The notes under the pieces: generated by a model
Seen by the model: the letters and a program-made list of their open reading frames with translations, nothing else
What the model was told of the DNA's origin: nothing
Database searches by the model: none
In this document: piece after piece, positions 556 through 20,518 of the stretch
Layout: each line of letters starts with the position of its first letter
How positions within the stretch are numbered: position 1 is the first letter of the stretch
Assembly (NCBI RefSeq): GCF_022179545.1
Contig: NZ_AP025518.1
Span: 2,976,001 to 3,040,000, forward strand
Direction of reading: 5' to 3'
Length of the DNA stretch: 64,000 nt
From: Mycolicibacterium fortuitum subsp. fortuitum
Lineage (GTDB): Bacteria; Actinomycetota; Actinomycetes; Mycobacteriales; Mycobacteriaceae
Position numbers and translations under genes: made by a program

Positions 556-2817
<2,262 letters not shown>

Positions 2818-2819
2818 TA

Positions 2820-3794
2820 GTGGCTGCATCAGTTTCCGAGCTGGCGGCCGCTATCCGCAGTGGTGACCGCGCCTCGTTGGCGCGGGCCATCACCATGGTG
2901 GAATCCACCCGGGCCGACCATCGTGACCAGGCTCAACAGTTGCTGCTGGAGTTGATGCCCGACGCGGGCAGAGCTCAACACATCGGCATCACAGGGGTTC
3001 CCGGCGTCGGCAAGTCGACGACCATCGAAGCCCTCGGTATGTACCTGATCGAGGCCGGCCACCGCGTCGCGGTCCTGGCGGTGGACCCGTCCTCCACCCG
3101 GACCGGAGGTTCGATCCTGGGCGACAAGACCAGGATGGCCAAGCTGGCGGTCCATCCGGATGCCTACATCCGGCCGTCACCGACGTCCGGCACCCTCGGC
3201 GGGGTGGCCAAGGCCACCCGCGAGACCATCGTTCTGTTGGAGGCGGCGGCCTACGACGTCATCCTGGTCGAGACGGTCGGGGTGGGGCAGTCCGAGGTCA
3301 CGGTGTCGAACATGGTCGACACGTTCGTCTTCCTCACCCTGGCCCGCACGGGTGACCAACTGCAGGGCATCAAGAAGGGTGTGCTGGAGCTGGCCGATGT
3401 CATCGTCGTCAACAAGGCCGACGGCGAGCATGCGATCGAGGCCAAGGCCGCTGCCCGCGAACTGACGGGCGCGATCCGTCTCATCTACCCGCGCGAAACA
3501 CTTTGGCGGCCACCGGTTCTCACCATGAGTGCGATCGAAGGCCACGGGCTTGCCGAATTGTGGGAGACGGTGCTCAAGCATCGCGAGGTGCTCACCGAGG
3601 CCGGTGAGTTCGATGCCAGGCGCCGGGCGCAGCAGGTGGATTGGACCTGGTCGATGGTGCGTGACACGGTGCTGGACCGTGTCATGTCTCACCCCGGTGT
3701 GCGCGACATCCGCAGCGAGGTGGAGCGCCGCGTGCGCGAGGGTGAACTCACCCCGGCGTTGGCCGCCCAGCAGATTCTCGAAGCGGCTGACTGA
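2820..3794 (+). CDS. meaB: MeaB/ArgK-type GTPase, mutase chaperone
   Basis: The product is a 324-residue G3E-family P-loop GTPase. The Walker A motif GVPGVGKST lies near residues 58-66, the switch/Walker B-like DPSSTRTGGSILGDKTRM segment follows, and NKAD is the guanine-specificity motif. MeaB proteins gate cofactor loading and protect methylmalonyl-CoA mutase from inactivation. The GTG start at 2820 is chosen because it sits 2 bases after the mutB stop and yields the normal family length. The shared operon with mutAB supports a dedicated mutase chaperone rather than a lysine/arginine transport ATPase, the historical ArgK name. Confidence 0.95.
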   Translation: MAASVSELAAAIRSGDRASLARAITMVESTRADHRDQAQQLLLELMPDAGRAQHIGITGVPGVGKSTTIEALGMYLIEAGHRVAVLAVDPSSTRTGGSILGDKTRMAKLAVHPDAYIRPSPTSGTLGGVAKATRETIVLLEAAAYDVILVETVGVGQSEVTVSNMVDTFVFLTLARTGDQLQGIKKGVLELADVIVVNKADGEHAIEAKAAARELTGAIRLIYPRETLWRPPVLTMSAIEGHGLAELWETVLKHREVLTEAGEFDARRRAQQVDWTWSMVRDTVLDRVMSHPGVRDIRSEVERRVREGELTPALAAQQILEAAD

Positions 3795-6509: not shown

Positions 6510-9500
6510 TTGGCCGAGACACCAGTCACCCCGATCGCCGTAATCGGCATGGGCTGCCGTTTGCCCGGGGGGATCGACTCGCCGGCCGCGTTCTGGCAGG
6601 CCCTCCTGCGCCGAGACGACCTCGTCACGAAGGTTCCGCTGGACCGGTGGGACGCGGACGAATACTACGACCCCGAGCCTGGGGTACCTGGCCGATCGGT
6701 ATCGAAGTGGGGCGCGTTCCTCGACGACGTCGCAGGTTTCGACGCGGACTTCTTCGGTTACGGAGAGCGTGAGGCGCCGTCCATCGATCCGCAGCATCGA
6801 CTCCTGCTGGAGACGTCATGGGAAGCGCTCGAACATGCCGGACTGGCGCCGGCAGACATCTCCGGTTCCTCGACCGGTGTCTTCCTCGGAATGACGCACA
6901 ACGACTATCAGATGGTTGCCGCCGAGGCCGACGCGCTCGACGGGGCGTACGGCTTCGCGGGGACCAACTTCAGCCTCGCCTCGGGCCGCGTCGCCTACGC
7001 GTTGGGCGTGCACGGACCTGCGCTGACGGTCGACTCGGCGTGCTCGTCGGGCTTGCTGGCAATCCACATGGCCTGCCGCAGCCTGCATGAGTCCGAAAGT
7101 GACCTGGCCCTAGCGGGTGGCGCGTCGCTCCTGCTCGATCCGAAGAAGATGGTGGCCGGTTCGGCGCAGGGCATGCTGTCGCCCTCCGGTCGCTGCCACG
7201 CCTTCGACATCGGCGCCGACGGGTTCGTCTCGGGCGAGGGCGTCGCGATGGTGCTGCTCAAGCGCCTCGCCGACGCCGAGCGTGACGGCGATCGGGTGCT
7301 GGCTGTGATCCGCGGGACGGCGGCCAACCAGGACGGCCACACGATCAACATCGCGACCCCGTCGGAGGAGTCGCAGAGCGCGGTCTACCGCGCGGCGCTG
7401 GCCGCGGGCGGTGTCGATCCGGTGACCGTCGGCATGATCGAGGCCCACGGAACCGGAACTCCGGTGGGCGATCCGATCGAGTACGCGAGTCTGGCGGCCG
7501 TGTACGGCACCGACGGACCGTGCGCTCTCGGGTCGGTGAAAACCAACATCGGCCACGCCCAATCGGCATCAGGGACGATCGGCCTGATCAAGGCCGTACT
7601 CGCGCTCCAACACGGCGCGGTTCCGGCCAACCTGCACTTCACCGAACTTCCCGAACCGATGGCAAGGCTCAAGAGCTCGTTGGTGGTACCGACCGAGCTG
7701 ATGCAGTGGCCGGTCTCCGGGGAACACCCGCGGCGCGCGGCCGTGTCGTCCTACGGGTTGTCCGGCACCAACGTGCACGCAGTGCTCGAGCAGGCGCCCG
7801 CCGGCTCTGAGTCTGCGGACGCGCCCACCGGTGACACCGAGCCGATGATCTTCCCGGTGTCATCCACCTCGGCCGAGGAACTGCGCCGCACCGCGGGTCG
7901 GCTCGCCAACTGGCTCATCCACGAGGCCGGTGACCAGCCGTTGCCGGATCTGGCGTACACGCTGACGCGGCGCCGCGCTCATCGGCCGGTCCGGACCGCG
8001 GTGACCGCGGCGACCGCCGACGAACTCGCGACAGCGCTTCGGGAGGTTGCCGAGGGCGACGCTGTTTACGAGGCCGCAGTGGGGACCGGCGACCGGGGAC
8101 CGGTGTGGCTGTTCTCGGGTCAGGGTTCGCAGTGGGCGGGGATGGGCGCGCAACTTCTCGCCAACGAGCCCGCGTTCGCGGCGGCCATCGCAGAACTGGA
8201 ACCTCTCATCGCAGAAGAGTCGGGTTTCTCTGTGACCGAGGCGATTTCGGATCCCGAGCCGGTCAAGGGCATCGACCGGGTGCAGCCGACGATCTTCGCG
8301 ATGCAGGTCGCGCTCGCCGCAGCACTGAGGTCCAGGGGAGTCCACCCCGGTGCGGTGATCGGACACTCGATGGGCGAGGCCGCTGCTGCCGTGGTCGCTG
8401 GGGCGTTGTCGCTGCAGGACGCCGTGCGGGTGATCTGCCGGCGCTCGGCCCTGATGACCCGGATCTCGGGTTCGGGCGCCATGGCCTCTGTCGAACTGCC
8501 CGCGCAACATGTGCTGTCGGAACTCGCCGCCCGCGGCATCAAGGACGTGGTGATCTCGGTGATCGCATCGCCGAAGTCCACCGTCGTCGGCGGAACCACC
8601 GAACGCATCCGGGAACTGGTCGCAGACTGGGAACAGCGCGACATCATGGCCCGCGAGGTCGCGGTCGACGTCGCGTCGCACTCGCCCCAGGTCGATCCGA
8701 TCCTCGACGAGCTCGCCGAGGTGCTCAGTGACCTGACTCCGCTCACGCCGACGGTGCCGTATTACTCGTCGACCTCCTATGACCCCCGCGACGAGCCCTA
8801 CACCGACGCGGACTACTGGGTCGACAACCTGCGTCACGCCGTGCGGTTCTCCGCTGCGGTGCAGGCCGCTCTCGAAGACGGCTACCGCGTGTTCGGTGAA
8901 CTGTCCCCGCATCCGCTGCTGGTCCACCCGGCTCAGCAGGTCGCCCGCAGCCTGGACATCAACATCGCCGCACTGCCGAGCATGCGACGCGAGACCGAGA
9001 TGCCCACCGGCCTGCTGCAGTACGTCGGCGACCTGCACAGTGCAGGCGCCGCAGTGGATTTCGCGACGTTGTACCCGGCGGGCTCGCTCGTCGACGCGCC
9101 GCTGCCGACCTGGACCCGTCTGCCACTGACCGTGAGCCGCGACGCGCGTGAGCACGTTCCCGGGGGCGGACATCTGCTCAGCGTCCACCCGCTGTTGGGC
9201 GCGCACGTCGTGTTGCCCGAAGACCCCGAGCGCCACGTCTGGCAGGCCGATGTCGGTGTTGATGCGCAGCCTTGGCTCGCCGACCATCAGGTTCACAACG
9301 TGGCCGCACTTCCCGGCGCCGCGTATTGCGAGATGGCACTGGTGGCCGGCCGCTCACTGTTGGGCGATGCCTGCGAGGTGCGGGACATCACCTTCGAGCA
9401 GATGCTGCTGCTGGACGCCGAGACGGTGGTCTCCGCCGAGGCGAAGGTCACCCCAGAAGGTGCGGTGCAATTCCTGGTCGAGACGGCCGGCGACGGTGAA

Positions 9501-12500
9501 CAGATCCGGCGGGCCGCGGCAGTGATCGTCGAGGCGCAGCCCCTCCAGGCTCCGGTTCGGCGCGACCTGGCCGAGCTCAAGGCGGCCCACCCTCGTCGCG
9601 TAGAGGGTGACGCGCTACGGAAGTGGTATGCGGACAAAGGTATTCAGTACGGCCCCGCGTTCTCCGGGCTGGCGGCCGCACACACGGCCGACGGCCCCGT
9701 CACCAGCGTGCTGGCCGAGGTGGCCCTGCCCAGCGCGATCCGCTCCCAGCAAGGCGCCTACCAGATCCACCCGGCACTGCTCGACGTGTGCTTCCAGTCG
9801 GTGGCGGCGTATGCCGAAGGGGAGGATCCGGGCGGTCTGCTGCTGCCGCTGGGTGTGAAGAGCCTGCGCGCATCTGGTTCCACCCGCTCCGCGCACTATT
9901 GCCTGCTGCAGGTCACCAATGCCGGCGCCGGCAACGTCGAAGCCGATCTCGACCTCCTCGATGAGGACGGCGAGGTCCTGCTCGTGGTTCGCGGCCTGCG
10001 GCTCGGCACCGGGATGACCGAAGCCGGTCAGCGGGAACGGACCTTCAACGAGCGCCTGCTCGCCATCGAGTGGCATGAGCAGGAACTGCCGGAGTCGCAG
10101 ACGTCGGGTACCGGCAAGTGGTTGTTGATCACGTCCGACGCCTCCGATCTGCTGGCCACCGAGCTGGCGGACGCGCTCGAACCAGATCTCGGTGACGTGT
10201 CGACGGTGGTGTGGCCCGACGGGGTCAACCGGCCGACGAATGCCGAATCGTTGCGCAAACACCTCGATGCTGACACCTACGGAGATGTCGTCCTGATTCT
10301 GGGCGCGGCTGCGGATGCGGGGGAGATGCGGTCGGCTGCCCGTGGTCTGGACCTTGTCCAGCGAGTGGTCCACATCGTGCGTGAACTGGTCGACGTCGAG
10401 GACCAGGCGCCCCGACTGCACCTCATCACGCGTGGCGCGCAGTCCGTACTGCCCACCGATGTGCTCAACCTCGATCAGGCCGGACTACGCGGGCTGGCCC
10501 GGGTGATCGGCAACGAGCAGCCGCAACTGCATGCCACCCAGATCGATGTCGATGAGCGCACCGATCCCAAAGACATTGCGCGCCAACTGCTCGCGGGAAG
10601 TCCCGAAGACGAGACGGCCTGGCGCGACGGTCGGTGGTACACCGCACGACTGGGTGCCAGTCCGTTGGCTGCCGACGAGCGCCTGACTACCGACGTCGAC
10701 ATGTCCGCGGATGCGGTGCGCGTGAGTATCCGCACCCCCGGCGATTTCGGTTCTCTGGAACTCACCACCTTCGAGCGGACCCTGCCCGAGCCCGGCTGCA
10801 TCGAGGTACGGGTCAGCGCATCGAGCCTGAATTACGCCGACATCCTCGCGGCCTCGGGTCGATACCCGGCATTGTCCGAGCAATCCGCCGCGCTGGGCCG
10901 CGATTTCGCGGGCATCGTCACCGCGGTCGGACCCGATGTCACCGGACACAAGGTCGGTGACCGGGTGGCCGGTGTGGCCGCAACCGGCTGCTGGAGCACC
11001 TTCGTCACCTGCCCCTCCGACCTCGCCGTGACACTGCCCGATGGGCTGGCGATGGACAGCGCCACAGCGGTACCCACCGCGCACGCGACGGCGTGGTATG
11101 CGTTGCGTGACCTGGCGCGAATCTCGGCGCAGGACAAGGTGCTGATCCATTCGGCAACCGGGGGTCTGGGTCTGGCGGCCATCGCGGTCGCACGGGAGTG
11201 CGGTGCTGAGGTGTTCGCCACCGCGGGCAGCCCCCAGCGTCGACAGCTGTTGCGGGATATGGGCATCAAGTACGTCTACGACTCACGCACCCTTGGCTTC
11301 GCCGACGAGATCCGTCGCGACACCAACGGATACGGTGTCGACGTCGTACTCAACTCACTGACCGGGGCGGGGCAACGCGCCGGTCTGGACCTGCTCGCCT
11401 ACGGCGGCCGGTTCATCGAGACCGGGGTCGCCGACCTTCGGGGCGACGCGAGCCTCACACCCGCGATGATCCGGCAGGCCGTGTCGTTCCACGCCGTGGA
11501 TCTGGCATCGCTGAGCCAGCGCCGGCCCGACGTGGTACGGAATCTGCTGGAGACCGTGTTCGGCAAGATCGCCGAAGGCGCACTGCCGCACCCGGAGATC
11601 AGCACCTATCCGTTGACCGAGTGGTCGGCGGCGATGGAACTGATGAGTGCGGCCGAGCACACCGGAAAGCTCGTCGTCGAGATCCCGGGTTCCGGCTCCG
11701 AATCCGCAGTGGTGCCGCCCGAGCACGCACCGGTCTTCCGCGCCGACGGGGCATACGTGATCACCGGCGGACTGGGCGGCCTGGGGCGGTTCCTCGCCGA
11801 CAAGATGGCCTCGGCCGGGTGCGGCCGGATCGTGCTCAACGCCCGGTCGCAGCCCTCCGCCGAGGTCCTCGTCGAACTCGACCGGATCCGAAGCCTCGGC
11901 ACCGAGGTCGAGGTCGTCACCGGAGACGTCGCGGACCCGGCCACCGCCGCCGCACTGGTGTCGGCGGCAACGGCGACCGGACTGGCGCTCCGGGGTGTCC
12001 TGCACGCCGCGGCAGTGGTCGAAGACGCCACCCTGACCAACATCACCGATGACCTCCTCGCCCGAGACTGGACGCCAAAGGTCCTGGGGGCGTGGAACCT
12101 TCATGAGGCCACCCGAACGGAGTCGCTCGACTGGTTCTGCTGCTTCTCGTCGGCAGCAGCCCTGGTGGGCTCGCCCGGGCAGGGTGCCTATGCGGCCGCC
12201 AACAGCTGGTTGGACGGGTTCACCCACTGGCGGCGGCGTCAGGGACTGCCCTCGAGCGCGATCGCCTGGGGTGCGTGGACCGAGATCGGCAAGGGCACCG
12301 GATTCGCCGACGCCTCCGACTCGGCGATCGCGCCAGAGGAAGGCGCCCACGCTTTCGAGACGATCCTGCGGCACAACCGCGGTTACGCCGGCTACACACC
12401 GGTGGTGGGGGTGTCCTGGCTCGCGGACTTCGCCAAGCGGGTCCCGTTCGCAGAGTCGTTCCGGCCCGCCAGTTCCGGGGACTCCGATGCCAGCGGCTTC

Positions 12501-12785
12501 CTGACCGAGTTGTACGGCAGCCCGCAGGACGAATGGCCTTCGCGGTTGCGCCGCCTGGTCTCCGACCAGATCAGCGTGCTGCTGCGTCGTTCGATCGACC
12601 CGGATCGTCCGCTGGCGGAATACGGAATCGACTCACTGGGCAACCTCGAGGTACGGACCAGGATCGAGACCGAAACCGGAGTGCGGATCAGCCCGGCGGA
12701 CATCACCACCGTCCGCGGGCTCGCCGACAAGTTGTGCGAGAAGTTGGCCGCCAATGCCGCCACGGAGCCGACACCGACGGCGTGA
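6510..12785 (+). CDS. Single-module highly reducing type I polyketide synthase (Pks2/MAS/Pks5-like)
   Basis: The protein has 2091 residues in the order KS-AT-DH-ER-KR-ACP. Visible catalytic residues are KS C178 (DSACSSG), H313 and H349, AT S620 (GHSMGE), DH H926, an ER NADPH loop near 1547 ([10 protein letters not shown]), a KR loop near 1748 (TGGLGGLG) with a Tyr near 1894 (GAYAAANSW), and ACP S2042 (GIDSLGN). The AT has VASH where YASH marks methylmalonyl and HAFH malonyl specificity, so methylmalonyl-CoA is the likely extender and a multimethyl-branched acid the likely product, as for Mas, Pks2 and Pks5. The TTG start at 6510 has AGAGAGG upstream. papA, fadD, sap, chp and mmpL neighbours point to an acyltrehalose- or LOS-like lipid. 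It appears intact. Confidence 0.93.
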
Positions 12786-12819
12786 TGCCGAATTCGGTTG
12801 AATTTATAGAGGAGTCACG

Positions 12820-14010
12820 TTGCTGTTAGGGTCCGTTTCGATCGGTTCGATCGAAGAGTGGGAAGCACCGCCCGGTTCTGCCGTTTCCTGGCGAGCCTCG
12901 CCGGCCTCGTGTGCCAAGGCGGCTGAAGCGCCCGTCAGTGACGTGCCGGTCAGCTACATGCAGGCCCAGCACCTGCGCGGGTTCGTCGATCAGCGCGCCA
13001 AGGGCTTGGACTATTCCCGTCTGGTGATCGTGACGTGTGACATTCCAGGGCAATGCGACATCAGGGCGATGACATACGTCGTCAACGCCCATGTGCGCAG
13101 GCATGACACGTTCCGTAGCTGGTTCGAGTACCACGATGTCCACAACATCGTGCGCCACACGATGCCCAATCCGGCCGACATCAAGTTCGTGCCCACCCGG
13201 CACGGCGATCTCACGTCGGAGGAACTGCGTCAGTTGACGCTGTCGACACCGGATCCGCTGCACTGGGACTGCTTCACCTACGGCATCGTCCAGTACCCGG
13301 ATCGGTTCACGATCTATGTGAGCATCGACCATCTGCACATGGATGCGACGTTCGCAGGTGTCACGCTCATGGAGTTCCACGCGATGTACACCACCCTCGT
13401 CAGTGGTGGCGCACCGCTGGCACTTCCGGAGGCGGGCAGTTACGACGCCTTCTGCATGCGGCAGAAGGAATTGCTCGGTTCTTTGACGCCGGACTCACCG
13501 GAAGTCAAGGCGTGGGCCGACTTCGCGACCAGCAACAACGGCAGTCTGCCGGACTTCCCACTGCCCCTGGGCGATCCGCTCGAGCCCTGTGGAGCGGAGA
13601 TGTGGGTCGAGACCCTCATGGACGAGGAGCAGACAGCCAACTTCGAATCGGCATGCGTGGCAGCCGGGGCCCGCTTCATCGGTGGCATGCTGGCCTGCAC
13701 CGGGATGGCCGAACATGAACTGACCGGAGCGGATACCTACTACGGGCTGACTCCGAGCGATACCCGCAAGACCACCGCCGACCTGATGACGATGGGCTGG
13801 TTCACCGGGTTGGTCCCGATCACCGACCCTGACCTGGGGACAGCTCTATCGGCGCGTCCGAAATCTGGCGGGGGAGCTGCAGAGCCACGCCGCCTCAGGA
13901 GACCGGGCGGTGGTGCTGGCGCCGCAGAGCCTGGACTACATCGTCGCCTTCCTGGCCTCGCTGGAGGCCGGCGTGGTCTGTGTCCCGTTGTCGACACCGA
14001 TGGTGGGTAA
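12820..14010 (+). CDS. papA: PapA-type acyltransferase, C-terminally truncated by a deletion
   Basis: Residues 1-334 match polyketide-associated acyltransferases, from the typical start through the catalytic HLHMD (HxxxD) to TMGWFTGLVPI. PapA enzymes are about 470-510 residues and end with a region containing the conserved DFGWG motif; that last ~135 residues is absent. From about base 13822 the DNA is fadD sequence read in the wrong frame, giving a nonsense Gly/Arg-rich tail to residue 396. PapA enzymes move the Pks-made acyl chain onto a sugar such as trehalose. The TTG start follows GAGGAG by 7 bases, 34 bases after pks. The protein is probably inactive. Confidence 0.85.
   Translation: MLLGSVSIGSIEEWEAPPGSAVSWRASPASCAKAAEAPVSDVPVSYMQAQHLRGFVDQRAKGLDYSRLVIVTCDIPGQCDIRAMTYVVNAHVRRHDTFRSWFEYHDVHNIVRHTMPNPADIKFVPTRHGDLTSEELRQLTLSTPDPLHWDCFTYGIVQYPDRFTIYVSIDHLHMDATFAGVTLMEFHAMYTTLVSGGAPLALPEAGSYDAFCMRQKELLGSLTPDSPEVKAWADFATSNNGSLPDFPLPLGDPLEPCGAEMWVETLMDEEQTANFESACVAAGARFIGGMLACTGMAEHELTGADTYYGLTPSDTRKTTADLMTMGWFTGLVPITDPDLGTALSARPKSGGGAAEPRRLRRPGGGAGAAEPGLHRRLPGLAGGRRGLCPVVDTDGG
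13819..13830 (+). other. papA-fadD deletion junction
   Basis: papA coding runs in frame through ATC at 13819-13821. From ACC at 13826 the frame shifted by one base reads TLTWGQLYRRVRNLAGEL, which matches FAAL FadD proteins from about residue 38 of the usual ~580. The end of papA, the intergenic DNA and the start of fadD are therefore missing, and possibly whole genes between them. No IS end, direct repeat or tRNA is visible at the join. Confidence 0.75.
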
Positions 14011-15439
14011 TCACGACGAACGGGTCACCGCGGTGCTGCGTGACGCAGCCCCCAGCGTCATCCTGACCACGTCCGCAATCGCCGAGACCGTGGCACCGTA
14101 TGCGATTGCGCAGGACGGCAACCCGGCGCCGGTGGTGCTCGAGGTCGACAAGCTCGAGCTCGACTCCCGTAAGCCGGTACGGCTGCGGCGCGAAGCCGCC
14201 CCAGAGACCGCCTACCTTCAGTACACGTCGGGCTCGACGCGAATCCCCGCGGGCGTGATGGTGTCGAACCGTAACCTCACAGCCAATTTCGAGCAGATGA
14301 TGGCCAGCTTCTACCCGGACTACAACCGGGTGCCGCCGGCCGACACGACCGTGGTGACGTGGCTGCCGCTGTATCACGACATGGGCATGATGGCAGGCAT
14401 CGTCGCGCCGATCCTGGCTGGGTGGCGCACCGTGATGATGAGTCCGTTGGCGTTCCTGGCCCGCCCGGCACGGTGGATGCAGCAGCTCGGCAGCGTGACC
14501 ACCGGTTTGACCGCGGGACCCAACTTCGCCTTCGATCTGGCATCGGCCAAGACCACCGATGACGACATGGCGGGTTGCGACCTGGGCAACGTGCTGAGCA
14601 TCATCAGCGGCGCCGAGCGTGTGCACCATGCCACCGTCGAGCGGTTCACCAAGCGGTTTGCCGCATTCAATTTGCAGGGCAAGGTGATTCGCCCGTCGTA
14701 CGGTCTGGCGGAGGCCACGTTGTACGTCGCGACGCGCGAGCCGGGGAAGCCTCCGGTGGTCGCGCATTTCGAACCGGAGAAACTGGCCGCTGGGCATGCC
14801 GAGCGGTGCGCCAACGGCACCGCACTGATCAGCTATGGCACCCCGCAGAGCCCCGCGGTTCGGATCGTCGATCCGGAGAACCGCACCGAGGTGCCCGCCG
14901 GGATGATCGGTGAGATCTGGGCTCAGGGCGAGAACATCGCGGCGGGCTACTGGAACCGGCCGGATGAGACGCAGGAGACGTTCGGCGCCACGATCGACGG
15001 TTCGCCGGATGGAACCTGGCTGCGGACAGGTGATCTGGGATTCATCTCCGAAGGCGAGTTGTTCATCATCGGACGCGTGAAGGATCTCCTGATCGTTCGC
15101 GGGCGCAACCACTACCCGGATGACATCGAGGCCACCGTGTCGGCGATCTCCCGTGGTCGCGTGGCCGCGATTGCGGTCAACCACGACGAGGAAGAGAAAC
15201 TGGTCGCGGTGATCGAGGTCAAGAAGCGCTCCGACGAAAGTCCGGAGGCACTGTCCGAGCGTCTCACGTTGATGAAACGGGAAGTGATCTCCGCCATCTC
15301 GACGACGCACGGGCTCAACCCCGCCGACCTGGCGCTGGTCGCTCCCGGCTCGCTCCCGATCACCACCAGCGGCAAGGTTCGTCGTGCCGCGAGTGCGGAA
15401 CTGTACCGCCGCCAGGGGTTTGCGAGGTTGGACGCCTGA
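13910..15439 (+). CDS. fadD: Long-chain fatty-acyl-AMP ligase (FAAL, FadD21/FadD23-like), N-terminally truncated
   Basis: This adenylating enzyme activates a fatty acid as acyl-AMP and loads it on the partner Pks. The motifs are YTSGSTRIPAGVM (A3, about residues 102-114), SYGLAEATLY, RTGDLGF, GRVKDLLIVRGRNHYPDD and SGKVRR near the C-terminus. Homology actually begins at base 13826, 28 codons before the first usable start (GTG 13910), and runs 537 residues to the stop. Compared with ~580-residue FAALs about 38 residues are deleted, and about 66 are lost if translation begins at 13910. The lost part belongs to the N-terminal domain, so function is doubtful. The gene is otherwise undamaged, which argues for a recent event. 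Confidence 0.88.
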   Translation: MVLAPQSLDYIVAFLASLEAGVVCVPLSTPMVGNHDERVTAVLRDAAPSVILTTSAIAETVAPYAIAQDGNPAPVVLEVDKLELDSRKPVRLRREAAPETAYLQYTSGSTRIPAGVMVSNRNLTANFEQMMASFYPDYNRVPPADTTVVTWLPLYHDMGMMAGIVAPILAGWRTVMMSPLAFLARPARWMQQLGSVTTGLTAGPNFAFDLASAKTTDDDMAGCDLGNVLSIISGAERVHHATVERFTKRFAAFNLQGKVIRPSYGLAEATLYVATREPGKPPVVAHFEPEKLAAGHAERCANGTALISYGTPQSPAVRIVDPENRTEVPAGMIGEIWAQGENIAAGYWNRPDETQETFGATIDGSPDGTWLRTGDLGFISEGELFIIGRVKDLLIVRGRNHYPDDIEATVSAISRGRVAAIAVNHDEEEKLVAVIEVKKRSDESPEALSERLTLMKREVISAISTTHGLNPADLALVAPGSLPITTSGKVRRAASAELYRRQGFARLDA

Positions 15440-15468: not shown

Positions 15469-16176
15469 ATGTGGGCAACCCTTTTACTGATGGCCGTCGC
15501 GGTCAGTCTCGAACCCGTACGGATCGGGCTGACCGTGCTGATGCTGAACCGGCCCCGACCGGTGCATCAGTTGCTGGCATTCCTGTGCGGCGGGTTCCTG
15601 ATGGGCATGGTGGTCGGTGTGACGGCTCTGCTGGTGCTCGACGCCGCACCGCTGGCTGCGGGCACGCTCACGGTGCCGAGAATGCAGATCGGGATCGGCA
15701 TTCTGGCCCTGATCGCCGCCGCCTTGGTGGCAGCCAACGTAGGTGGGCGGCGGGCGAAGACGCCACCGGAGGAACCTGAGGCGTGCGGGCAGTCCGGCCA
15801 GGTGGCGCTTGCGGCTCCGCGAGTGGGTTTGCGCGCCCGGATACGGGCGGTGATGCAAGGCAATTCGCTGTGGGTCGCCGGTGTCAGCGGGCTGGGCATC
15901 GCCCTGCCATCGGTCGACTACCTGGCGGCACTGGCGGTCATCCATGCCTCCGGCGTCGCGCCGGGTACACAGCTCGGCGCGCTGATCGGTTTCAACCTGG
16001 TGGCATTCGCGCTCGTGGAGATCCCACTCCTGAGTTACCTGGTCGCCCCGCAACGTACGCTGGAGTGGATGACGCGCGTGCACGCCTGGATCCGCTCGTG
16101 CACGCGGCGCGACGTGGCGATGATTCTCACTGCGGCAGGCGCTTTGTTCATCACGATCGGCCTGCTCGGAATATGA
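15469..16176 (+). CDS. Sap/Gap-family integral membrane protein
   Basis: The 235-residue protein has six hydrophobic segments (about residues 1-20, 33-58, 66-90, 127-150, 160-185 and 212-233). It resembles the GAP family: Sap of sulfolipid-1 and Gap of glycopeptidolipid loci. These small plasma-membrane proteins work beside MmpL transporters to deliver the finished or partly acylated glycolipid to the cell surface. It follows fadD by 29 bases, and its TGA overlaps the ATG of the next gene. No transport motif is known for the family, so the role is taken from family and context. Confidence 0.85.
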   Translation: MWATLLLMAVAVSLEPVRIGLTVLMLNRPRPVHQLLAFLCGGFLMGMVVGVTALLVLDAAPLAAGTLTVPRMQIGIGILALIAAALVAANVGGRRAKTPPEEPEACGQSGQVALAAPRVGLRARIRAVMQGNSLWVAGVSGLGIALPSVDYLAALAVIHASGVAPGTQLGALIGFNLVAFALVEIPLLSYLVAPQRTLEWMTRVHAWIRSCTRRDVAMILTAAGALFITIGLLGI

Positions 16177-17450
16177 GCGACGGCATGGCACCGCCGACGG
16201 GCGGCGCACGGAAGGGAGACGGCAGGATGGCTGGAGTCAACGGAGGGCGTCGTCGTCCCGATGCCGGCCGCGTCCGGAGCCGGTCTCGAAACGCCCTCCG
16301 CCGCGGCCCCCAGGGCCTGCTGGCCGGAACCTTCGCCGTCGGACTCGTCGCCGCAGGAACGGTCTTCGGCGCCGGACCCGCCTCCGCCGAGACGGCGCTG
16401 ATCTTCGGCGGAGCGCGCGGGCCCGGTATTCCGTGGGATCAGATCACCAATAGGGTGGGCCGCGGCTATTACCCGAATGCGAACCGGCACATCGTCGAGT
16501 ATCCCGCCGGGATGGTGTACGGCCGGTTGCCGGACAAGTTGTGGCCCGGCAACGACATCTCGACCGAGAGCGTCGGTGATTCGGTGGACATCGGTGCGCG
16601 CAACCTGAAAACCGCGCTGCAGGGCACGCCCGGCCAGACCGTGGTCGTCGGCAACTCGGAAGGGGCCCTGGTGCTCAGCGAGGCGCTGGCGCGCCTGTCG
16701 CAGGATCCCGATGCGCGCGCGCCTGAAGGCGTGTCCTTCACGCTGTTCGGGCCCCCGCAGTCGGTGACACCGTTCAGCCATTCGGTGCTGTCGACGCTGA
16801 CGCCGGGAACGTACGTTCCGCTGATCGACTACACGGTGCGCGGTCCGGTGGAAAGCCAATACGACACCACCTTGGTGGTGGGTGAATATGACTTCATCGC
16901 CGACTTCCCCGATCGGCCGGACAACTTCCTGGCGCTGGCGAATTCGCTTGTCGCCCTGGAGTATCTGCACACCGAGACGTCGTACTCCACCCGTGAGGAC
17001 GTACCGCCGCAGAACATCTTCGTCACGGTCAACTCCAAGGGGGCGACGCAGACCGCGTATTTCCTGCCGACCAAACTCCTACCGCTGACCAGACCCCTTC
17101 GCGATCTCGGAGTTCCCAACGAACTGGTCGACCAGCTCGACGGCGTGGTGCGACCCATGGTGGACGCCGGATACTCGCGTAACGACTACCCGGGTGCCCC
17201 GGCTACCGGTATCGATCCCGTCGCGCGGGCCAACGTCGAGGATTGGTTGCGGCAGGCCGGCACTGGCCTGTCGGAATTGCCGCCGCCGCAGCAGCAGACT
17301 CCCGTGTCGCAGCCCACGATCAAGCTGAGCCGCACCGACCAGGAGAACATCGACAAGGCGGTCCAGGGCATCAAGGTGAGCCCCACCGATCAAGCGAACA
17401 TCGACAACGCGGCTGCGCAGGTGAAGAACCTGTTCCCGGGAATCGGCTAG
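16173..17450 (+). CDS. Secreted PE-PPE-domain serine hydrolase/acyltransferase (Chp-like)
   Basis: The 425-residue protein has an N-terminal Arg-rich extension and a signal peptide or signal anchor ending near GPASA (about residue 70). An alpha/beta hydrolase domain (PF08237 type) follows with nucleophile motif GNSEG near residue 160 and a later Asp/His region. In M. tuberculosis Chp1 and Chp2, encoded beside mmpL8 and mmpL10, complete acylation of sulfolipid and polyacyltrehalose outside the membrane. The ATG at 16173 overlaps the stop of the Sap-like gene (ATGA), supporting coupling. It is not itself a PE protein. The Gln/Pro-rich C-terminal ~80 residues contain two similar stretches ([14 protein letters not shown] and [14 protein letters not shown]). 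Confidence 0.85.
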
Positions 17451-20400
17451 ACGCGCTCGCGTTCGCCGGCTTCGGCGCCCGCCTTCAGCCGGCCTCTGAG
17501 CCGGCTGAGCTGCTGGGTGACGAAATCGGACGGCCACCAGTTCGCCGTGCCGATCAGGGTGGCGATGGCGGGAACGGTCAAGGTACGCACCAGGAACGTG
17601 TCCAACAGGATCCCCACGCCCACAACGAATCCCGCCTGAACGACAGTGGTGATGCTGGCGAACAGCAGCCCGAACATCGACGCGGCGAAGATCAGTCCGG
17701 CCGCGGTGATGACTCCGCCGGTGGATCCGACGGTGCGGATCACGCCCGACCGCACGCCATGGGGAGACTCATCGCGTATTCGGGAGATCAACAGCAGGTT
17801 GTAATCCGCGCCGACGGCGACCAGCACGATGAAGGTCAGTGCCGGCACGCTCCAATGCAACTGCTGACCAAGGACATACTGGAACATCACGACACCGATG
17901 CCCAGGGCCGACAGGTACGAGATCACCACGGAGGCGATCAGGTACAGCGGCGCCACGAGCGCGCGTAACAGGACCACCAGGATCAGCAGCACGACAGCGA
18001 TCGTGACCGCGATGATGAGCCGGATGTCGTGGTTGTAGAAGTCGCGCGTGTCGCGGAGCATCGCCGGATATCCGGCGATCGACACCGAGGACCCTTCGAG
18101 TGCGGTGTTGGGCAGCGCGCCCCGCGCGGTGTCGCCGATCGCGTTGACCAGGTTCATCGCCTCGGTGCCGAAGGGATTGATGTCGGTCTGGATCAAATAG
18201 CGCGCCGTATGGCCGTCCGGCGAGATGAACGTCGCTGCGGCCTTGCGGAAGTCGTCCTGGGTGAGGATCTGTGCGGGCACGTAGAACCCCGACATCGGTG
18301 GGCTGGCCGCGTCGGTCTTCATGCTGAGCAGGAATGCCGACGCCTCGTCGAGCCCCGAGCCCATCCGTTTGGTCTCGGTGACCAGTTGCGAGACTCCGTC
18401 GGCGATCTGCCTGCTGGCGTCGGCGAGAGTATCGGCGCCGGTCTGCAGCGTGCTGAGCTGCGAACGTGCCTGTGCCGGGTTGGCCAATCCCATGGATTGC
18501 ATGGCCTTGCCGGCGGTGTCGATGGTCGCGCTGAGCTTCTTGACCGTGTCGTCGAGCGACTGCATCGGATCCGTTGCTCTCAGATCCCTTGCCAGCGCCG
18601 CGATCTGATCGAAGGTCCCATCGGTGCGGGCTGCGGCCAGCCGGCGCAGCGAATTGCGGGCCTCAAGACAGGCCGGGTCGGTGAGGCAGACGGGGCTGGT
18701 GTCCAGGCCGCGTAGGACCGGATCGATCCACGGCATTCCGTTGGTCAGGTCGGCGAAGTTGGAACCGAGCGAGTCGCCGAGCGCCCGCATGCTGCTGACG
18801 AGTTTCGCCGCGCTGTCGATCTGCTGGAGCGTGGTATTTCCGCCGACCTGCTTCTGCATCGTCGCGAGGGCATCGACCAGGCCACGCGCTCCGGCTACGC
18901 CGCGGGTGACCTGCGTGCGCACATCGAGAAGGCTGGTGGCCAGCGAATCTGCGCCGTCGGTGAGACGGTTGAGATCGCTTGCACGCCCGCTGATCTGGGT
19001 GGAAGCGTCGTTCAGCTTGGTTCCGACCTCGCCGGCCTGATAGCTCAGTCGCGCCTGCTGCAGCGATTCTCCCGTCGGGCGGGTGATCCCGCGCACGACC
19101 GCGATCCCGGGAAGCTGGCTCACCCGCTGGGCCATCTGTTCCAGGTCGGCCAACGCCTGGGGGGTACGCAACTCGTTGGGGGACTGGATGATCAGATACT
19201 GCGGAATGGCCGAGCTGATCGGGAAGTGGTCTTCCAGCGCCGCATAACCCATCGAGCTCTCGGCGTGCGCCGGCAGCGCCTTGCGGTCGTCGTAGTTGTA
19301 TTGGACGAGCGCCGCGCAACTGGCCAGCGCCGCAAGGACGACCAGACTGGCGGCCAGATGAGACCACGGCCGGCGCACGATGCGGACGCCGGACCGGCGC
19401 CAGATCCGGCTCGTGAGGTCGCGGCGAGGGGCGATCCAACCCCGGCGTCCGACGAGCACCATGACGGCCGGAAGCAGCGTCAACGCGGCCAACAGTGCGA
19501 TGCCGATGGCGACGGCGAGGGCCGTGCCGACGGTGGAGAACACGCCGAGTTGGGCGAACGTCATCCCCAGGAAGGTGACGGCGACCGTAGCGGCGGAGGC
19601 GGCGATGACCTTTCCGATCGAGCCGAGCGCCTGTTCGACCGCACGATCGGACTCCAGCCCGTCGCGGAGATAATCGTGATACCGGCTGATGAGGAACACC
19701 GCGTAGTCGGTGCCGGCGCCGGCCATCATGGCGGTCAGGAACACCACGGTCTGGTTCGAGATACCCATGCCGAGTGACGCCAGGCCGGCGATCACCGATT
19801 GGGCGGTCACCAGCGATGCCCCGATGGTGAGCAGGGGCAGCAGCATCGTGACCGGATTGCGGTAGATGAGCAGCAGGATCACCAGAACCATGCCGATCGT
19901 GGCGATCTCGATGGCGGTGGTGTCGTGTTCGCCGATGTCGGTGAGGTCGGCGACCGTGGCGGCTGGACCGGTGAGACTGGCGGTCAGTGAGGCGTCATGG
20001 ACGCTGTCTTTGACGATGGCGGCGACGCGGGTATAGGCCGCGTATGACTGCGGTGAACCGACGTTGCCCGCGATGCCGACCGGCAATATCCAGGCCTTGC
20101 CGTCCTTGCTGGCCATGAACTCACGCAGGGGCGGGGTACTGATGAAGTCCTGCAGCATCACGACATCGGTGTCGTTCTTGCGCAGATTGTCTACCAGCGT
20201 GCGGTACGTAGCTTCGTCTGCGGGGCCCAGCCCCTTGTCGTTGCTCAGAACGACCAACAGGACGTTCTCTGAACCGGATTCGTGAAATGCCTCGGTCATC
20301 TCACGGGTGGCGAGGGTGACCGGTGCGTGTGAGGGCAGGATGGCGACCGGACGCTGTTGCACCATCAGGGTCAACGACGGGAACGTGAGCGGCAGGACAG

Positions 20401-20518
20401 CCGTGATGGCCAACCAGATTCCGATGACGAGCCAGGGCCATCGCACGATCAGCGAGCCGAGCCGGACGAACAGAGAGGAGTGTTCGGCCGTGCTCATAGA
20501 TTCTGTCGGCGACGGCAC
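17447..20518 (-). CDS. MmpL-family RND lipid transporter (MmpL8/MmpL10-like)
   Basis: The 1023-residue transporter has the MmpL layout: TM1 near residues 30-50, a porter loop, a TM2-6 block with [17 protein letters not shown], a long helical extracytoplasmic loop (about residues 440-770) and a second block with [14 protein letters not shown]. The paired DY residues are proton-relay positions of the family. It probably exports the glycolipid built by the facing pks-papA-fadD genes. The start may be GTG 20518 or ATG 20497; neither has a clear ribosome site. Its stop overlaps the stop of the chp-like gene, so the two units converge. The gene is intact although papA and fadD are damaged. Confidence 0.92.

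What the first reader, a model, noticed from the sequence alone, without database searches (positions are those of the whole stretch)
13000..14300. papA and fadD are joined out of frame by a deletion
Seen: PapA sequence runs intact to residue 334, and from base 13826 the DNA reads as a FAAL FadD from about its residue 38, one base out of frame. The PapA C-terminus with the conserved DFGWG region, the intergenic DNA and the FadD N-terminus are gone. Both remaining parts look undecayed, so the event is recent, a strain-specific loss, or an assembly error. Loss of acylated surface lipids often accompanies laboratory adaptation or colony-morphology change. In related loci other genes, such as an mmpL, can lie between papA and fadD and might also have been lost.
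Basis: partly seen in the sequence, partly recalled or inferred. Interest (0 to 1): 0.75.

Follow-up and report, generated by a model that had tools for sequence, protein, structure and literature searches.

The report
Deletion breaking two lipid genes
One mycobacterial strain has lost a 557-base piece that ruins two neighbouring genes of a surface-lipid pathway still intact in its relatives; the break sits where DNA resembling a sister species ends, hinting that a gene swap and the loss were one accident.

Summary
PapA reads intact for 334 codons and at 13825/13826 meets fadD, in another frame, at codon 38. All 6 close relatives with both halves side by side have exactly 557 more bases there: 410 of papA, 36 intergenic, 111 of fadD. 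None has a gene between; the MmpL is intact at 17447-20518. In the cut listing for 396 genus genomes, no other genome's match runs more than 9 bases across the junction. A 574-residue FadD named M. fortuitum is 99% identical, so intact near-conspecific copies exist; an identical 479-residue short FadD from a 17.8-kb contig suggests a second assembly with the break. The cluster (Pks2-type synthase, PapA, fatty-acyl-AMP ligase, Sap, PE-PPE protein, MmpL) resembles acyltrehalose clusters, so the strain probably lacks that lipid; a trehalose-polyphleate-like locus elsewhere is open. The 'DFGWG' motif is absent from intact relatives too. New here: papA up to the junction is about as close to M. peregrinum as those genomes are to each other (dS 0.14-0.19, against 0.44-0.51 in pks and fadD). 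Import and deletion may be one event; this is inferred. Verdict: real strain-level gene loss, modest interest.

The parts
12820..13825 (+). papA remnant: 334 of 471 codons, HX3DX14Y motif kept (motif name recalled), C-terminal 137 residues lost
   Evidence: Open frame; Pfam Condensation 44.6 bits, cut-off 30.6; nearest solved sequence PapA2, 6aef; motif and lengths
13825..13826 (.). deletion junction; 557 bp present in 6 of 6 close relatives are missing; 1-nt overlap
13826..14010 (+). out-of-frame tail added to the PapA frame, stop at 14008-14010
   Evidence: 12820-14010, 396 aa
13826..15439 (+). fadD (fatty-acyl-AMP ligase) remnant from codon 38; first ATG/GTG/TTG start after the last in-frame stop is GTG 13910 (codon 66), first ATG is 14000 (codon 96)
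   Evidence: NF004509 fatty-acid--AMP ligase 826.5 bits, cut-off 775; nearest solved sequence FadD23
12500..13825 (.). tract of M. peregrinum-like ancestry; left edge placed between 12403 and 12539, right edge at the junction
6510..12785 (+). Pks2-type polyketide synthase, open
   Evidence: NF041183 3335.9 bits, cut-off 2400
15469..16176 (+). Sap-like membrane protein, open
   Evidence: PF11139 192.1 bits, cut-off 35
16182..17450 (+). PE-PPE domain protein (Chp-like acyltransferase by family), open; start approximate
   Evidence: PF08237 194.8 bits, cut-off 21; NF041570 acyltransferase PE 270.2 bits, below its cut-off of 580
17447..20518 (-). MmpL transporter, open
   Evidence: PF03176 609.1 bits; TIGR00833 948.9 bits, cut-off 874.7

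Best explanation
A real, recent, strain-level 557-bp deletion in an acyltrehalose-type lipid cluster breaks two adjacent genes at once. PapA keeps its catalytic motif but loses its last 137 of 471 residues and gains a nonsense tail. The fatty-acyl-AMP ligase loses 37 codons outright and, for lack of an earlier common start codon, at least 65 residues in translation. The synthase then has no dedicated partner to activate its starter and the acyl chain has no enzyme to place it on the sugar, so the cluster's lipid should be absent or strongly reduced while pks, sap, the PE-PPE gene and mmpL stay open. Shown: the missing stretch, the frames, the intact relatives, the family of each gene. Inferred: that both proteins are inactive, that the lipid is lost, that end joining made the join.
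For: 557 bases missing against 6 of 6 close relatives; no other genome in the cut listing for 396 genus genomes has a match running more than 9 bases across the join; a 574-residue protein named M. fortuitum differs from the window at 4 of 537 comparable residues; the identical 479-residue short form in a cluster whose one contig is 17,760 bp; no stops in either remnant and low dN/dS; the other cluster genes are open; of the 6 direct-repeat families found around the breakpoints in relative L002, none has one copy at each breakpoint; a Ku gene is present. In M. tuberculosis, loss of fadD21 or papA3 removes DAT and PAT (PMC4183827, passages).
Against: No raw reads were seen. The 17.8-kb contig may come from the same strain. 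Paralogues might substitute: ligases at 1045 kb (60% identical) and 358 kb (56%) and a PapA at 352 kb (50%); an M. smegmatis fadD23 mutant keeps some TPP (PMC10465359, passages). The lipid of this cluster is not known.
Confidence: 0.85

Rival explanations
1. Import and deletion were one event: a peregrinum-type DNA fragment recombined by homology near 12.5 kb, and its other end was end-joined to the native fadD at 13825/13826, removing 557 bp. This refines the best explanation rather than contradicting it.
For: papA dS to L002, L003 and L005 is 0.144-0.191, against 0.440-0.477 in fadD and 0.495-0.513 in pks; rate change placed at 13840, 13809 and 13840, with support 13770-13856 over the three; such a tract is among the top 0.9% of 1300-bp windows over 305 kb; a random 557-bp deletion would meet or touch a tract edge roughly 2-3% of the time (my arithmetic from the 6 tracts); Ku is present; mycobacterial conjugation leaves donor tracts of 59 bp to 226 kb (PMC3706393, passages).
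Against: A tract ending anywhere inside the 557 bp would look the same. The overlap is 1 nt, where HFIR usually shows 3-10 bp, and HFIR is rare in other bacteria (PMC3240628, passages). Mosaicism is not confined to papA: the PE-PPE gene also has lowered dS to the same group (0.255-0.316). The window's place in the papA tree has support of only 0.27. No intact papA of the window's own species was available.
Confidence: 0.38
2. Assembly artefact or contamination chimera: the join, and perhaps the peregrinum-like papA, come from mis-joined reads.
For: A mosaic edge and an illegitimate join at one place is also what a chimera would give; no reads were seen.
Against: Single-contig genome, 100% complete with 0.17% contamination; the short FadD identical to the window's also occurs in a cluster whose one contig is 17,760 bp; the papA tract is 3.8-4.3% different from each of L002, L003 and L005, so it is no copy of them; the left edge is clean homologous DNA.
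Confidence: 0.08
3. The remnants still work: a shortened FadD is made by re-initiation (papA-frame stop at 14008-14010 beside ATG 14000) and the short PapA keeps some activity, so the lipid is altered rather than lost.
For: Stop and ATG lie within 11 bases; a database holds the 479-residue form as a gene call; the HX3DX14Y motif is kept.
Against: Both proteins lose long conserved stretches; the FadD remnant enters the Pfam AMP-binding profile only at position 51 of 384. A gene call is not evidence of a working protein.
Confidence: 0.06

Closest known systems
Acyltrehalose clusters of M. tuberculosis (DAT/PAT: pks3/4, papA3, fadD21, mmpL10, chp2; SL-1: pks2, papA1, papA2, fadD23, mmpL8, chp1, sap)
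   Same: Same set of gene families: Pks2-type synthase, PapA, fatty-acyl-AMP ligase, MmpL, PE-PPE protein, Sap (roles in PMC4183827 and PMC9989471, passages).
   Different: One PapA instead of the two of SL-1; the two central genes are broken; product unknown.
Trehalose polyphleate (TPP) locus
   Same: pks, papA, mmpL, PE and fadD genes; natural loss of TPP genes is reported in M. abscessus clinical isolates (PMC10465359, abstract and passages).
   Different: In the own genome a separate locus at 341-360 kb has that shape and is open; the window's locus has its mmpL on the far side, on the other strand.
papA2 frameshift arising in M. nivoides during infection
   Same: Natural loss of a PapA-family gene in the M. 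fortuitum branch (PMC13095810, passages).
   Different: A one-base frameshift in 4 of the M. nivoides colonies, not a two-gene deletion; I did not test whether that gene is the orthologue.
Homology-facilitated illegitimate recombination (HFIR)
   Same: One tract edge in homologous DNA, the other at an illegitimate join with loss of several hundred bases (definition from PMC3240628, passages).
   Different: 1-nt overlap instead of the usual 3-10 bp; no foreign non-homologous DNA was gained; a single event is not proven.

Membership tests
SL-1 (Pks2-type) cluster | Pks2 synthase | tested here: met
   NF041183 3335.9 bits, cut-off 2400
SL-1 (Pks2-type) cluster | two acyltransferases, PapA1 and PapA2 | tested here: not met
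   The PapA piece finds only itself and one other place in the genome, at 352 kb in another locus
SL-1 (Pks2-type) cluster | FadD23-type fatty-acyl-AMP ligase | tested here: inconclusive
   General model NF004509 met (826.5, cut-off 775); FadD21 and FadD28 models not met (766.4 and 685.6, cut-off 1100 each); nearest solved sequence is FadD23; the gene is truncated
SL-1 (Pks2-type) cluster | Sap, Chp-type PE-PPE acyltransferase and MmpL | tested here: inconclusive
   Sap PF11139, PE-PPE PF08237 and MMPL PF03176 met; acyltransferase PE NF041570 below its cut-off (270.2 against 580)
SL-1 (Pks2-type) cluster | Stf0 sulfotransferase in the genome | tested here: met
   PF09037 350.1 bits, cut-off 22, at 664 kb, outside the cluster
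SL-1 (Pks2-type) cluster | sulfolipid product | not testable with these tools
   needs lipid analysis
TPP locus | mmpL10 lying between papA3 and fadD23 | tested here: not met
   The window's mmpL is at 17447-20518 on the minus strand; 6 of 6 close relatives have the same layout; the locus at 341-360 kb has the TPP layout. Gene order of the TPP locus from locus-tag numbers in PMC10465359 (passages)
Homology-facilitated illegitimate recombination | one homologous tract edge and one illegitimate join with deletion | tested here: inconclusive
   Ancestry step at the join and 557 bp lost; a tract end inside the lost piece fits as well
Homology-facilitated illegitimate recombination | 3-10 bp micro-homology at the join (usual, not invariable) | tested here: not met
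   1 nt; the criterion is from PMC3240628

The most novel reading that the evidence does not exclude
A natural, sequence-level record of a one-sided interspecies import in mycobacteria: donor papA DNA entered by homology at one end and was end-joined at the other, so that gaining a sister species' gene fragment and destroying a two-gene lipid module were the same event. If common, such events would help to explain losses of surface-lipid clusters in fast-growing mycobacteria.
Probability: 0.38. Interest if true: 0.45.

Novelty: new member of a known kind. Interest (0 to 1): 0.3.

Why it matters
A complete genome with a broken lipid cluster should not be taken as typical of its species for surface lipids. 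In related mycobacteria, loss of an acyltrehalose-type lipid (TPP) changes phage infection (PMC10465359, abstract and passages), though the TPP-like locus here is open. The junction is also a small, testable case of whether mycobacterial mosaicism and end joining act together.

Tried and rejected
Rejected: loss of an mmpL between the genes (nothing lies there in 6 of 6 close relatives). More distant loci do have genes between: in L006 and L014, the two that I opened, two genes each, three of the four with a WS/DGAT acyltransferase match just above the Pfam cut-off and one with no Pfam match, none MMPL. Rejected: a conserved fusion (cut listing). Rejected: recombination between direct repeats at the two breakpoints (6 repeat families in L002:9300-9980, none with one copy at each breakpoint). 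Rejected: an unusual DNA fold at the join (z -0.17). Weighed: that papA is simply conserved. papA dS in the three relative-relative pairs is 0.288-0.506, not specially low, while window-peregrinum is 0.144-0.191; but papA does evolve more slowly than pks in most pairs. Left open: whether P0001 (90% identical PapA, 60 members) is the species' native PapA; it is nearer L106 (92.6%) than the window (90.1%), and clustering at 90% hides members. Paper searches listed no title or abstract that ties this locus to a lipid of M. fortuitum; I read none of those papers in full.

The single genome-contig scan kept the best 80 of 261 loci. The match lists and the hit lists (best 120) were cut. dN/dS is pairwise Nei-Gojobori and mostly records time before the deletion. 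The step test used L001, L002, L003 and L005; L001 gave only a weak step with a wide interval (13611-14008). No structure was predicted.

For this version I re-checked the counts, ran, replaced 'no listed match spans' by the exact overhang, and added the distant loci with genes between.

Full report
What is there. The window lies in a 6,406,072-base, single-contig genome. The nearest named relatives of the locus are Mycobacterium sp. DL99, three Mycolicibacterium peregrinum records and Mycobacterium sp. GA-1841 (L001-L005). The window's FadD piece is 99% identical to a 574-residue protein named Mycolicibacterium fortuitum, so the species is probably M. fortuitum or very near it; that rests on one name. 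The locus reads: Pks2-type synthase 6510-12785, papA remnant 12820-13825, fadD remnant 13826-15439, Sap-like protein 15469-16176, PE-PPE protein to 17450, and on the other strand an MmpL, 17447-20518. The solved proteins nearest in sequence are PapA2 for the PapA piece and FadD23 for the FadD piece.

Check of the observation. In L001-L003 the papA alignment ends at window base 13825, in L004 and L005 at 13829; in all five the fadD alignment begins at 13825. Counting the overlaps, 557 bases are missing from the window. The same figure follows for G361, G021, G201, G364, G217 and G159, the six genomes in the listing whose two matches lie within 1 kb of each other, and for L106 directly. Contig lengths show that the first five are L005, L003, L002, L001 and L004, so there are six independent relatives, not eleven. 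From the coordinates the 557 bases are 410 of papA with its stop, 36 intergenic and 111 of fadD (37 codons). In one search, 384 of 396 genomes had some match; in its listing, which was cut, no match outside the own genome runs more than 9 bases across the junction.

Frames. The papA frame crosses the join and reads out-of-frame fadD to a stop at 14008-14010. The fadD frame is open back to a stop at 13787; its first ATG, GTG or TTG after that is GTG 13910, codon 66 of the intact protein, and its first ATG is 14000, codon 96. PapA keeps an HX3DX14Y motif (name recalled; a paper search with the term found no occurrence). DFGWG is absent from the PapA of all 6 relatives and from P0001.

What lies between papA and fadD elsewhere. 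Nothing in the 6 close relatives, whose MmpL sits as in the window, on the minus strand beyond sap. In 2 more distant loci that I opened, L006 and L014 (FadD 68% and 64% identical), two genes of 452-476 codons lie between; three of the four match the WS/DGAT acyltransferase domain just above its cut-off, one matches nothing, none is an MmpL. In the own genome's TPP-like locus an MmpL does lie between.

Real or artefact. P0122, a 479-residue protein identical to the window's FadD from ATG 14000, stands for 4 member sequences and one contig of 17,760 bp. That is not the 6.4-Mb contig, so a second assembly probably yields the short form; it may be of the same strain. P0121 differs from the window at 4 of 537 comparable residues; by eye, three of the four window residues agree with P0123 and P0124, and one (235) is the window's alone among these.

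Age. Neither remnant has a stop. dN/dS between the window and 6 relatives is 0.021-0.095 for papA and 0.054-0.085 for fadD; three relative-relative pairs give 0.055-0.107 and 0.064-0.079. These values mostly describe the time before the break, so they say only that no long decay followed it.

A step in ancestry at the join. Against L002, L003 and L005 the window's papA has dS 0.175, 0.191 and 0.144; fadD has 0.477, 0.440 and 0.456; pks 0.497, 0.495 and 0.513. In papA the window differs from these three at 3.8-4.3% of sites, about as L002 differs from L005 (3.7%); in the first 675 bases right of the join it differs at 11.4%. A two-rate model puts the change at 13840, 13809 and 13840, with support 13770-13856, 13781-13856 and 13799-13852, and the left change between 12403 and 12539. 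L001 gives only a weak step with a wide interval (13611-14008). L002-L001 dS in papA (0.359) lies between their fadD (0.291) and pks (0.486) values, so the window rather than the peregrinum group looks like the receiver (inference). In the papA tree the window joins beside the peregrinum group with support of only 0.27, so no donor can be named. Over 305 kb aligned to one peregrinum genome, 0.9% of 1300-bp windows are as similar as this tract and 6 tracts, this one included, reach 95%. Some may be conserved genes rather than imports. The PE-PPE gene also has lowered dS to the same group (0.255-0.316), so mosaicism is not confined to papA.

How it most likely arose. Two readings fit. In one event, a donor fragment recombined at its left end and was end-joined at its right end, losing 557 bp. 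In two events, an older import ended somewhere in the stretch that a later deletion removed. With about 12 tract edges in 305 kb, a random 557-bp deletion would meet or touch one about 2-3% of the time (my arithmetic), which favours one event; the rarity of HFIR in other bacteria and its usual 3-10 bp of micro-homology (PMC3240628, passages) weigh against it. The 1-nt overlap and the Ku gene fit end joining. I put the single event at 0.38.

What it does. In M. tuberculosis FadD21 activates the starter for Pks3/4 and PapA3 places the acyl chains on trehalose; loss of fadD21 or of papA3 removes DAT and PAT (PMC4183827, passages). By analogy this cluster should make no finished product. Paralogous ligases at 1045 kb (60%) and 358 kb (56%) and a PapA at 352 kb (50%) exist, and an M. 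smegmatis fadD23 mutant keeps some TPP (PMC10465359, passages), so the loss of PapA is probably the weightier. The TPP-like locus at 341-360 kb is open. Which lipid the window's cluster makes is unknown: it meets the Pks2 model but has one PapA, so I do not file it as an SL-1 cluster.

Verdict. The finding is true and well placed. It is an ordinary kind of event, a strain-level loss of two lipid genes, made more interesting by the ancestry boundary at the join.

Noticed in passing
16182-17450: The PE-PPE gene also has lowered synonymous divergence to the peregrinum group (dS 0.255-0.316), perhaps a second import tract.
   Followed up: partly
556-3794: A methylmalonyl-CoA mutase and its MeaB GTPase lie upstream of the synthase; they may bear on the methylmalonyl-CoA pool for methyl-branched lipids.
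   Followed up: no
L099-L100 (G000:C1 about 341-360 kb): An open TPP-like locus: 3693-codon synthase, PapA 473, MmpL 1008, a 404-codon frame, FadD 588.
   Followed up: partly
L101 (G000:C1 about 1037-1055 kb): A third related locus: a synthase 62% identical to the window's, a ligase 60% identical, a Sap-like gene and MmpL genes; the PapA piece has no match there.
   Followed up: partly
L006 6898-9705 and L014 7035-9791: In more distant species two acyltransferase-like genes lie between papA and fadD; they are absent from the window's clade.
   Followed up: partly
G000:C1:829961-831796: An MmpL-type match split over two frames, one with an inner TAG, possibly a broken gene.
   Followed up: no
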